This document shows, piece after piece, positions 23,132 to 35,057 of a stretch of DNA of 64,000 nt. The DNA lies in contig MVRE01000012.1 in NCBI GenBank assembly GCA_002067895.1, positions 1 to 64,000 of the forward strand, written 5' to 3'. The stretch's first letter is position 1. Each line of letters opens with the position of its first letter. Both the position numbers and the translations under genes were made by a program. This stretch comes from Methanoregula sp. PtaU1.Bin051. GTDB lineage: Archaea; Halobacteriota; Methanomicrobia; Methanomicrobiales; Methanospirillaceae. A model generated the notes under the pieces. That model had not been told where the DNA came from. It saw only the letters and a list, made by a program, of their open reading frames with translations, and made no database searches.

Positions 23132-26100
23132 ATGAGTAGCATTTTCCAGATGCATGAGAAGATTGTTGAAGATTATCAGAAATATGTACAGAGTTTTCTC
23201 TCAATCTCGGATGACAGAATCCGGGATTTTATCGAAGATCACCTTGTCCGAAAAAATTCACTCTGGCCCGATGCTCTCATCCAGGTCAATCCCGCATATG
23301 AATCCGCCTCAACAATCGAGAAATTAGTTCAGGAAAAGATTCTCCACCCAACGCTTGCCGACATTTTCCGCGATGAACAGAACCGTTCACTCCTCCTGTA
23401 CCGCCACCAGGTCGATGCAATCAAGAAGGGAACAGAACGCCGGTCATTCGTTGTGACGAGCGGGACCGGTTCCGGGAAAAGCCTTGCCTATCTCATTCCG
23501 ATTTTCGATGCCGTTGCCCGTACGAATCCTGGGGATCCCAAGGTTCGGGCAATCATCGTTTACCCGATGAACGCCCTTGTCAACTCCCAGTATGAAGCCC
23601 TGAAGCGGTACGCGGAAGGTTTCGAGCGGAGAACCGGGAAACCGTGTCCCATCAATTTCAGGAAGTATACCGGGCAGGAGAAGGACGAAGAGCGAAAGCA
23701 GATCCAGCAGAACCCGCCCCATATCCTTCTCACCAACTATGTGATGCTCGAGCTGATGCTGATCAGGCCGGAAGAGCATACTTTCGTCGATGCAACCACC
23801 TCGGGCATCCAGTTTCTGGTCTTTGATGAACTGCACACCTACCGGGGCCGGCAGGGTGCTGATGTTGCGCTGCTGATCCGAAGACTGCGGAAGCGTTGCG
23901 GGAACCCGGACCTGCTCTGTATCGGTACCAGCGCCACCATGATTGCCGGCAGGAAGACGACGGCATCGGAACGCAAACTCGCCGTCGCCAACTTCGCTTC
24001 GACGATTTTCGGTGTGCCCATTGAATCACACGATATTATTGAAGAGACGCTCCAGCGGGTCACCCAACACCCAAGAACTCCTTCAAAAGAGGAGTTGGTT
24101 CGAAGCCTGAAGTCCCAGGTCCCGGCCTCCAAAGAGGCATTTCTCGCTGATCCGCTGACCGCGTGGATCGAGTTTACATTCGGCATTTATCAGGAGGAGG
24201 AAGGGCATTACCGGAGGCGGGTCCCGATCAGTCTGAAAGACGGGGCGAAGATGCTGGCAAAGGAGACAGGATTGCCCTGCGAGGATTGCATGTCCCGGCT
24301 CAACCAGATGTTTCTTGCCGGCAGCCGGTTCATCATGGACGGCGGCTTCCCGCTTTTCGGATTCAAGCTCCACCAGTTCATCTCTCAGGGCCGTACAATT
24401 TATTCAACGGTTGAACGTCCCGAGTCCCGCTATCTCACACTTGAGGGCCAATACTATGCGCCGGGCACCGAAGAGAAGAAACTCCTCTATCCTCTGAAGT
24501 TCTGCCGTGTCTGCGGTCAGGAATATTACATGGTGAGCCGCGATACGCACGAGCAGGTGATGTACCCGGATGACGAGAATGCTGATTACTCAGATGAAGA
24601 GGGATCGTCCGGTTATCTCATGCTTGCGGTCAATGACGATCGGCACACATGGGGTCTTGAAGATATCCCGCCGGACTGGATTGATACAAAAAGTAAGAAG
24701 ATCAAGGTGAAGAAAGCCCGGCAGAACAATGTTCCTGTCGCGGTCTGGGTTCGTCCCGATGGTTCCTACACAGATGCATCATCAGAGGGGCGGCCTGAAG
24801 GGAGTGTCAAAGCCTGGTATCAGCCCAAGCCGTTCATGCTCTGCCAGAGCTGTGGAGAATATTACACCGCACGAAGCCAGAACGATTACCGGAAACTGAG
24901 CGGGCTGGCAACCGAAGGCCGCAGTACCTGTACGACCGTGCTCTCCCTCGCAGCATACCAGCGGGCCCCGCTCGCTAACATTGAGGGTAAGGCCCGTAAA
25001 GTGCTGAGTTTCACGGATAACCGGCAGGATGCATCGCTCCAGGCCGGGCACTTCAATGATTTTGTCCAGGTCTCATTCCTCAGGGGAGCAATATACAAAG
25101 CCCTCAGGAAAGACGGGCAGCTGAAATACGACCAGATCGCCGACAAGGTACTCAGTGCCACGGGCCTGACAATCAGGGATATTGCCGGCAATCCCGCGAT
25201 CGATGAACATACGCCGAAGGCCAAAGAGACCTGGGATGCGTTCCGGGATCTCCTTGAGTACCGGATTTATGAAGACCTGCGGCGCGGCTGGCGTGTCGTC
25301 CAGCCCAACCTTGAGCAGGTCGGCCTTCTCGCATTCGAGTATCAGGGTCTGGATGAGGTGTGCGAAAAAGACGCTCTCTGGAAAGAGATCGGGCCAATGC
25401 GGGATCTCTCAAAGGAAGAGAGAAAGGAGATTGCAAAGAATGTCCTGGATTTCTTCCGGAAGAAACTTGCAATCAGGACGGAATGTTTCGATGACGGCCA
25501 CCTCCAGCAGCTCCACCGGCAGGTCTACCATACCATCAATAAAAAATGGAGCCTTGATTTCATCGAGAGCAAACCCACGCATGCCGGCAAGTTCGTGCTT
25601 CCCGGGAAGAGCGAGGCTCTGCTTTTTACTAACAGCCTGAGCGAGACGAGCCTTGTCGGAAGATACCTCAAACGCAGCCTCACAATCACAACGGATTACC
25701 GCCCGTTCATCAACCGGTTTATCGATCTGTTGTTCACTGCCGGGATTCTGATCGAAAGCAAAGAACGCGGCAACCCGTATTTCCAGGTCGATGCATCGGT
25801 GATTCTCTGGAAGGTGGGGGACGGGAGTCCCAAACGTGATCCCATCTATTCAACCAAGGCCGAAGGGCCCTCATTTGACCAGGTGGAACGCCGTGCGAAT
25901 GAATATTTCAGCAGGTTCTATCAGGAAGTAGCCCTGTCACTCAAGGACGTGGAGAGCAGGGAGCATACGGCACAGATAAAATATGAAAACCGGGCTGAAC
26001 GCGAGAACCAGTTCCGCGAGGGCAAACTTGCCGCCCTCTTCTGTTCCCCGACAATGGAACTTGGTATCGATATCGCCGACCTCCAACTCGTTCACCTCCG

Positions 26101-34100: not shown

Positions 34101-35057
34101 AGTAAGTTTTTTGAAAATGAAAGAAAAGAGGATTTTCTTCCACTTTATGAAGGTAAATTAATTCATCAGTTTAATCACAGATACACAAGTTTTGAAAACG
34201 CCACTCAAGCTAACTTAAATTCAGGAATATTACCTCAAACCTCATTGAGCCAAAAAATAGATCCGTGTTTTTCGATTCTTCCAAAATATTGGGTGCCTGT
34301 TCGAGAAATAACCTCGCGAATACATGAATCAAAGAGAAAATGGTTCTTGGGATATCGAAGGATTACGAGTAGTGTTGTTGAAAGAACAGTTATAGCTGTA
34401 ATCTTCCCCTTTTCAGGGAGTAGCGATGGTCTTCCAATTTGTCTATCACCGAATTTGAAATCTTATTTATCTGGATCGTTAATGGCGAATTTTAACTCAT
34501 TAATTTTTGATTATTGTGCACGTCAGAAAATCGGGGGAACCCATTTGGATTTTCATCAGCTAAAACAACTCCCCGTTATCCCCCCCGACCGCTACACCCC
34601 CGCCGACCTCGCCTTCATCGTCCCCCGCGTCCTCGAACTCACCTACACTGCATGGGACATCAAGGCCTTTGCCGATGATGTCTGGCGAGATGCCGACGAT
34701 GCGATGAAGGCCCTCCTCCGCCAGCAGTGGGAAGCGAACAAGGCCGTGACCGGCGGGCATGGGTGGAAGCCTCCCGAATGGGTGGAGATTGAGAAAGACG
34801 GCATCCCGCTGCCACCGTTCAAGTGGGATGAGGAGCGGCGTGCGGTGCTGCGAGCGGAGCTCGATGCGTTGTATGCCCGGCTCTATGGATTATCACGGGA
34901 TGAGCTACGGTATATCCTGGATCCTGCGGATGTGTACGGGCCGGAGTTCCCCGGCGAGACGTTCCGGGTGCTGAAGGAGAAGGAGATCAAGAAGTACGGG
35001 GAGTACCGGACGAGGAGACTGGTGCTGGAAGCGTGGGACAGGATGGAGAAATTATGA
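31137..35057 (+). CDS. Large adenine-specific DNA methyltransferase, DrmMI/Eco57I-like
   Basis: This 1,306-residue protein is an N6-adenine methyltransferase of the Eco57I/PglX class. It has SAM motif I DPACGSGHF at about residue 481 and catalytic NPPW at about 748, preceded by KSTGSYYTPPELV. An N-terminal helical domain of about 400 residues resembles DrmMI. Bases about 32,830-34,560 (residues about 565-1140, carrying NPPW and the putative target-recognition region) are strongly AT-rich, while both ends are GC-rich like the rest of the operon. The start is ATG 31137, overlapping the SNF2 stop. It probably marks self DNA for the locus. Confidence 0.9.
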   Translation: MITRFPTLRLEGGLISSDQIDRIADQRIKEFTIDDIAAAWSDIRSYWTIFQNNLAKLPEDDLATSITRNRWMMPFFSTLGYDLSSPRTAAEADGQTFAISNRAGKDESSPPIHIVGIRQSLDRRPESGRPRLAPHSLVQEYLNRTEHLWGIVTNGSTLRILRDSHLLRKQAYIEFDLEQILKDELFADFALLYRLIHVSRLPKGIDDADLCLLEQYHRQTVEQGGRVRDHLRDGVEKALIRFGNGFLNHQRNSALRSRVQDKSLEPFEYYQQLLRLIYRFLFLMVSEERNLITDNMSYREHYSISRIRRLVEVRAAYTQQEDLWLGLATTFRLFQDESLGPLLNVPILNGDLFDPERTSEINEISLTNRDLLTATWDICMYREKENAPWRRVNYAALDVEELGSVYESLLDFQPVFVQKNGKPEFLLLTGTERKSTGSYYTPPELVNELIQSTLVPTMKDRLAGAKTGEEKANALLGMTICDPACGSGHFLLAAARTIGRELAKARTGDEEPAPEQMRIAIRDTITHCIYGVDKNPLAVDLCKVALWLEGHTKAKPLTFLDHRIRCGDSLIGVFDLKVLEEGIPEEAYTQVINDDKSVAKELKKQNKEYKKHESQNRSLIEFDPALNALTASRQQMNAITDDKPEYIRKKKELFSEFQQEGTPWCKDKTACDLWTSAFFIELTKEKMLQRVIPTTNSLRQYFTGELGVENLQVQTARRLAKKHRFFHWQLEFPEVFAKGGFDCNLGNPPWGIVELNPIEFFSTRDPKIANAQNMAARQKMINNLERDNPSLFSEYKNNKRIIENYQKFIHSSRRFPYTSYGRINSMALFAELTQQMNNMTGRAGLILPIGIATDSFNQHFFSNLIEKKSISRIIGFENEDFIFPNIHHAFKFCALTVTGNAVKNPKSDLAFFCRNFSHISQNQRHFELSADEFFLINPNTRVCPIFRTKNDAELIKKIYNRVPVLINEKQEQNPWNLNLTLMFMMNIDSKFFENERKEDFLPLYEGKLIHQFNHRYTSFENATQANLNSGILPQTSLSQKIDPCFSILPKYWVPVREITSRIHESKRKWFLGYRRITSSVVERTVIAVIFPFSGSSDGLPICLSPNLKSYLSGSLMANFNSLIFDYCARQKIGGTHLDFHQLKQLPVIPPDRYTPADLAFIVPRVLELTYTAWDIKAFADDVWRDADDAMKALLRQQWEANKAVTGGHGWKPPEWVEIEKDGIPLPPFKWDEERRAVLRAELDALYARLYGLSRDELRYILDPADVYGPEFPGETFRVLKEKEIKKYGEYRTRRLVLEAWDRMEKL

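What the first reader, a model, noticed from the sequence alone, without database searches (positions are those of the whole stretch)
23132..35057. Hybrid defence-like locus: helicase-DUF1998-nuclease, DrmD-like SNF2, DrmMI-like methylase
Seen: three genes in one coupled operon (2-base gap, then ATGA overlap). Known: class 1 DISARM has separate drmD, drmMI, drmA (helicase), drmB (DUF1998) and drmC (PLD nuclease) genes; Druantia has a large DUF1998 helicase, DruE. Here one protein of about 1,700 residues carries helicase and DUF1998, no drmC is found, and a nuclease-like tail may replace it. It may be a compact DISARM variant or a separate type.
Basis: partly seen in the sequence, partly recalled or inferred. 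Interest (0 to 1): 0.75.

Follow-up and report, generated by a model that had tools for sequence, protein, structure and literature searches.

The report
ARMADA Type I defence in an archaeon
The three genes form a known kind of virus-defence system, ARMADA Type I, described in a 2025 preprint; here a methanogen-like archaeon carries it on a 40-kb mobile element, and the part of its methylase that should choose the target DNA sequence looks swapped in from elsewhere.

Summary
In detail: three intact co-directional genes (23132-28243, 28246-31140, 31137-35057; 2-base gap, then ATGA overlap) encode a DUF1998/YprA helicase with a Vsr-type nuclease tail, a SNF2/RapA-like ATPase and a PglX/DrmMI-like adenine methylase. 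It is neither a compact DISARM nor a new type: it is ARMADA Type I (Bell et al. 2025 preprint, PMC12458937), with the same genes, order and C-terminal nuclease, no ArmD found, and already reported from archaea. Trees nest it among mostly bacterial ARMADA-I loci, away from DISARM, Druantia and the more usual ArmC of its own order (about 28-35% identical). Two things were not in the finding. (1) The locus is cargo of a ~40.0-kb element (6798-46803) inserted in the anticodon loop of tRNA-Leu(CAA); three congeners have the empty site, and the element carries an intact tRNA-Leu. (2) armB is a sharp compositional mosaic: codons 565-1143, holding the target-recognition region, have GC3 0.26 against 0.76 either side, and the nearest archaeal relative shares 68-81% of the N-terminal part but 27% of the recognition region. 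I read this as exchange of a specificity cassette; the tree test alone is not significant.

The parts
23132..28243 (+). armC: YprA-like SF2 helicase with DUF1998/MZB domain and C-terminal Vsr-type nuclease (1703 aa)
   Evidence: Pfam DEAD, Helicase_C, MZB; tree; motifs
27833..28240 (+). Vsr/DUF559-type nuclease domain with linker at the C-terminus of ArmC
   Evidence: Invariant E, D, DG and H in 51 homologues; PDB profile hits are Vsr-type nucleases; Pfam DUF559 in 39 and MTES_1575 in 34 of 47 members; AF2 pLDDT 88.9, best fold I-Bth0305I
28246..31140 (+). armA: SNF2/RapA/BrxHII-like ATPase (964 aa)
   Evidence: tree
31137..35057 (+). armB: PglX/DrmMI-like adenine-N6 methyltransferase with target-recognition region (1306 aa)
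32829..34565 (+). low-GC3 cassette inside armB (codons 565-1143): NPPW motif and target-recognition region
   Evidence: Two change points, GC3 0.76/0.26/0.77; homologue census; nearest archaeal relative
6755..6807 (-). left attachment site: 3' half of the host tRNA-Leu(CAA), split at the anticodon loop
6864..8030 (+). tyrosine integrase of the element
   Evidence: Pfam Phage_integrase; PHROG integrase
46644..46726 (-). intact tRNA-Leu(CAA) carried by the element
   Evidence: ARAGORN
46804..46846 (-). right attachment site: 5' half of the host tRNA-Leu(CAA); 10-bp core ATCTTGAGTC shared with the left site

Best explanation
This is an ARMADA Type I anti-virus system (armC-armA-armB) carried by a ~40-kb element integrated in a tRNA-Leu(CAA) gene of a methanogen-like archaeon. 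Most likely mechanism (inferred): ArmB, a PglX-type methylase, marks an adenine in a short motif chosen by its recognition region, so host DNA is protected. ArmA, a RapA/SNF2-type dsDNA translocase, helps find or remodel unmodified incoming DNA. ArmC loads on exposed single-stranded DNA, translocates, and cuts with its C-terminal Vsr-type nuclease, so viral or plasmid DNA is destroyed without killing the cell. Specificity seems to change by replacement of the recognition region of ArmB while the catalytic N-terminal part stays. Shown here: genes and motifs, family placement, nuclease family, the element and its empty site, the composition mosaic. Reported by others for E. coli ARMADA Type II: helicase and methylase motifs are required and defence is non-abortive. 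Not shown: activity of this locus, its motif, or the order of steps. Identity as ARMADA Type I about 0.95; the mechanism as worded about 0.55.
For: Same genes, order and C-terminal nuclease as published ARMADA Type I. Trees place window ArmC and ArmA with L096 (Deltaproteobacteria), L024, L104 and L025 (Desulfofundulus), in sets of 3 to 10 rows with SH-aLRT 98-100, away from DrmAB/DrmD, DruE and E. coli ARMADA II. Full-length ArmC homologues at 38-58% identity, with the same operon in D. radiodurans MP1, Nocardioides and a related archaeon. Vsr-type tail. Element and empty site. Mosaic armB. The PglX C-terminal domain sets motif choice in BREX (PMC11341690); DruE, a relative of ArmC, is a helicase-nuclease acting on ssDNA-containing DNA (PMC13192584).
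Against: The BrxA-like insert said to mark ARMADA/Druantia helicases was not detected with Foldseek or Pfam (truncated model, inconclusive). 33 of 93 ArmC homologues lack the nuclease motif, so cutting by ArmC may not be universal. The tree test for exchange of the recognition region is not significant (p-AU 0.13-0.32). I know of no activity data for Type I, and none exist for this locus.
Confidence: 0.8

Rival explanations
1. A compact class 1 DISARM in which drmA and drmB are fused and a Vsr-type tail replaces drmC.
For: Genes 2 and 3 are distant homologues of DrmD and DrmMI.
Against: Real DrmD and DrmMI score 783 and 1647 bits on the models giving 324 and 284 here. ArmC scores highest on DruE models, far above DrmA (373 against 59 bits). 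In the tree DrmAB sits on a very long separate branch. Nocardioides JS614 carries both systems side by side on one plasmid.
Confidence: 0.03
2. A Druantia variant (DruE with a methylase).
For: Best PADLOC models for ArmC are DruE.
Against: DruE from two E. coli Druantia III loci branches away from the window's clade; no Druantia partner was found in the operon, whose partners are ArmA and ArmB.
Confidence: 0.02
3. The low-GC3 recognition region of ArmB is native, fast-evolving sequence with relaxed codon usage, not an exchanged cassette.
For: Recognition regions of most ArmB homologues are lower in GC3; the AU test does not reject a common history; the region's identity to L096 is close to that expected from all pairs.
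Against: The change is step-like on both sides (GC3 0.76/0.26/0.77); no dip of that size occurs in ArmA or ArmC; the archaeal relative with 68-81% N-terminal identity has only 27% here; across pairs the two identities correlate weakly (r 0.28).
Confidence: 0.3

Closest known systems
ARMADA Type I (Bell et al. 2025 preprint, PMC12458937)
   Same: YprA helicase with Vsr-type tail, then BrxHII/RapA-like ATPase, then PglX-like methylase; this gene order; no ArmD; reported from archaea and bacteria
   Different: Nothing in architecture. The preprint notes reversed order in many archaea; this locus keeps the order it gives as general. A term search of its main text found no mention of exchange of the methylase recognition region
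ARMADA Type II (E. coli; plasmid locus L017)
   Same: Homologues of all three proteins; experimentally anti-phage and non-abortive (preprint)
   Different: Order A-B-C plus ArmD; ArmC only 22-31% identical in segments
Class 1 DISARM (Nocardioides JS614, L118)
   Same: SNF2 (DrmD), methylase (DrmMI) and DUF1998 helicase of the same superfamilies
   Different: Helicase and DUF1998 split as DrmA/DrmB; DrmMI 17-34% identical by segment
Druantia III (DruE)
   Same: Large YprA-like helicase with a nuclease tail
   Different: PLD-type nuclease and DruH partner; no methylase
BREX PglX
   Same: Methylase with N-terminal catalytic and C-terminal motif-recognition parts
   Different: Different operon; only distant similarity

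Membership tests
ARMADA Type I | YprA helicase in the ARMADA-I clade, separate from DISARM, Druantia and Type II | tested here: met
   ArmC tree and ArmA tree; quick trees; the preprint's own Type I reference protein was not available
ARMADA Type I | BrxHII/RapA-like and PglX-like genes in the operon, generally after the YprA gene | tested here: met
   same order in 45 of 80 fetched loci
ARMADA Type I | C-terminal Vsr-type nuclease with active-site residues | tested here: met
ARMADA Type I | BrxA-like helical insert after RecA1 | tested here: inconclusive
   Helical region predicted at about residues 278-397 but no BrxA hit
ARMADA Type I | One zinc-motif insert in the OB region (two in Type II) | tested here: inconclusive
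   One pair of CxxC motifs there, at 1288 and 1303; fold not modelled
ARMADA Type I | No ArmD (GajB/UvrD-like) gene downstream (almost always present in Type II) | tested here: met
   Downstream ORFs scanned gave no UvrD/GajB match
ARMADA Type I | Anti-phage activity | not testable with these tools
   Needs an experiment
Class 1 DISARM | DrmD and DrmMI orthologues | tested here: not met
Class 1 DISARM | Separate drmA and drmB, PLD-type drmC | tested here: not met
   One fused gene; no PLD model hit in the scanned proteins
Druantia | DruE in the Druantia branch with Druantia partners | tested here: not met
   partners not found

The most novel reading that the evidence does not exclude
ARMADA changes its DNA target by recombinational exchange of the recognition cassette of ArmB while the catalytic part and the helicases stay, and it moves between bacteria and archaea on tRNA-targeting elements; the window is a recent exchange still visible as a composition step.
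Probability: 0.6. Interest if true: 0.5.

Novelty: new member of a known kind. Interest (0 to 1): 0.38.

Why it matters
It gives an archaeal ARMADA Type I with defined mobile-element boundaries and an empty site in congeners, and it points to the recognition region of ArmB as the part that changes. That makes a specific prediction testable by sequencing: hosts with similar ArmB catalytic parts but different recognition regions should methylate different motifs. It also shows that a PADLOC-DB 2.0 model labelled DpdE (PDLC02853) matches ARMADA ArmA at full length, so annotation pipelines may misname these loci.

Tried and rejected
DISARM and Druantia membership (rejected). Neighbouring genes as conserved operon partners: no homologues of the immediate neighbours beside ArmC in the bacterial loci; the gene at 22442-22954 (-) has a 52% homologue beside the archaeal locus L181 but no Pfam match. 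BrxA-like insert by fold and Pfam search (inconclusive). Tree incongruence of the recognition region (suggestive, not significant).

Full report
Observation. Three open, co-directional frames lie as described: 23132-28243, 28246-31140 and 31137-35057, with a 2-base gap and an ATGA overlap. Pfam gives DEAD/Helicase_C/MZB(DUF1998), SNF2/Helicase_C and Eco57I/N6_Mtase. Helicase and methylase motifs are intact.

Identity. A 2025 preprint (PMC12458937) defines ARMADA. Its Type I generally has a YprA-like helicase gene first, then a BrxHII/RapA-like ATPase and a PglX-like methylase, with a Vsr-type nuclease fused to the helicase, and it occurs in a variety of archaea; ArmD belongs to Type II. The window matches on each point that I could test, except that two structural details were inconclusive. 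Plasmid records hold full-length ArmC homologues at up to 44% identity, with the same operon in D. radiodurans MP1 and on a Nocardioides plasmid that also carries a class 1 DISARM. In a genome scan the 80 best loci are bacterial where the title names the organism; 54 hold all three genes on one strand: 45 in the order C-A-B, 8 A-B-C and 1 B-C-A; most of the rest are cut by contig ends.

Trees. Window ArmC sits with L096, L024, L104 and L025 in sets supported by SH-aLRT 99-100; DrmAB, E. coli ARMADA II and DruE lie on long separate branches. ArmA agrees. These are quick trees and the long branches are not placed reliably, but the nesting of the window is firm. Gene order does not follow the tree strictly: A-B-C loci such as L030 and L036 lie in the window's 10-row set. 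In the window's own class, 12 of 232 genomes have an ArmC match at E <= 1e-60; besides the window only G170, of the same family, has the close form (58%), the rest being 30-35%. G170 (L181) has the same C-A-B order; L111, an archaeal locus of the distant form, is A-B-C. Transfer from bacteria is the simplest reading, and G170 shows that it is not confined to this genome.

Nuclease. In 51 aligned tails L7, S39, E42, P57, Q61, D72, D84, G85, H88 and D97 are invariant (rows were chosen for the DGxxH motif, so that part is by construction). The profile's five PDB hits at E <= 1 are all Vsr-type or related endonucleases (weak E-values, 0.015-0.89). Pfam DUF559 matches 39 and MTES_1575 34 of 47 members. 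The AF2 model (pLDDT 88.9) has the I-Bth0305I catalytic domain as best fold (probability 0.98, E 0.099). The motif is present in 60 of 93 homologues, so the tail is not kept in all.

DISARM test. Real DrmD and DrmMI from Nocardioides score 783 and 1647 bits on PADLOC models PDLC02621 and PDLC02643; the window scores 324 and 284. PDLC02853, labelled DpdE, matches window ArmA (634) and the D. radiodurans one (769) over nearly the full length.

Mobile element. A 53-nt repeat (6755-6807 and 46644-46696) led to a host tRNA-Leu(CAA) split at a 10-bp core, ATCTTGAGTC (6798 and 46804). Joining the flanks in a script restores an 84-nt tRNA, 98% identical to the intact gene in congeners G004 and G006. 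In G004, G005 and G003 the left flank, the tRNA and the DP2 gene are collinear without the element (the window has about 3 kb more between tRNA and DP2). The element carries an integrase next to its left end, an intact tRNA-Leu(CAA), an ArdC-like protein and a Dam-like methylase, and a 1047-aa protein 91% identical to one in G004 and common in the order. That the host is a methanogen-like archaeon is inferred from the archaeal DP2 gene and genome features; no name was available.

Mosaic methylase. GC3 along armB is 0.76 (codons 1-564), 0.26 (565-1143) and 0.77 (1144-1306); the log-likelihood gain for two change points is 169. A synonymous-codon shuffle gives z = -17.8. Across homologues the lowest 380-codon dip has median -0.13 in ArmB against -0.05 in ArmC and -0.03 in ArmA, and the window is the extreme of 59 (-0.42). 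Identity to L096 is 67-77% in the N-terminal part, 42-52% in the cassette and 73% in the C-terminal part. L181 is 68-81% in the N-terminal part but 27% in the recognition region, and its own GC3 falls from 0.59 to 0.22 across the same stretch. Among homologue pairs some share 82% N-terminal and 29% recognition identity (L086/L094), and the two identities correlate only at r = 0.28. Against this, the AU test does not reject a shared history of the region (p 0.13-0.32), and low GC3 there is common in the family. Exchange is the best reading rather than proven.

Mechanism. PglX in BREX uses its C-terminal domain for motif recognition (PMC11341690), and DruE, a relative of ArmC, engages ssDNA-containing DNA and degrades long substrates (PMC13192584). 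In E. coli ARMADA II, Walker motifs of ArmA and ArmC and the NPPW motif of ArmB are needed and cells stay viable. From these I infer methylation-guided sorting of self and non-self DNA with ArmC as helicase-nuclease effector.

Verdict. A real, apparently intact member of a named system. The finding's novelty claim falls; the element context and the ArmB mosaic are the additions.

Noticed in passing
window 6798-46803: ~40.0-kb integrated element that splits tRNA-Leu(CAA) at the anticodon loop and carries an intact copy of that tRNA; empty site in three congeners.
   Followed up: yes
window 32829-34565: Low-GC3 cassette inside armB, consistent with exchange of the recognition region.
   Followed up: yes
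window 10054-11124 (-): ArdC-like antirestriction protein (ArdcN + MPTase-PolyVal) on the same element as ARMADA.
   Followed up: partly
window 36660-37900: Two overlapping genes (197 and 216 aa) in low-GC DNA; possibly a toxin-antitoxin pair, no significant Pfam match.
   Followed up: partly
window 38449-41592 (-): 1047-aa protein with homologues in 42 of 61 relatives (91% in a congener), probably a replication or maintenance protein of the element family.
   Followed up: partly
window 18769-20154: AlbA_2/RecG-C-like protein with weak PADLOC matches, on the element.
   Followed up: no
window 49850-53746 (-): DNA polymerase DP2 gene with a possible intein (Pfam Intein_splicing, below the curated cut-off).
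   Followed up: no
window 22442-22954 (-): Divergent gene upstream of armC with a 52% homologue beside the archaeal locus L181; possible partner or regulator.
   Followed up: partly
window 61372-62449: Imperfect repeats at multiples of about 93 nt, probably a repeat protein.
   Followed up: no
PADLOC-DB model PDLC02853: Model labelled DpdE matches ARMADA ArmA proteins over nearly full length (634 and 769 bits).
   Followed up: yes
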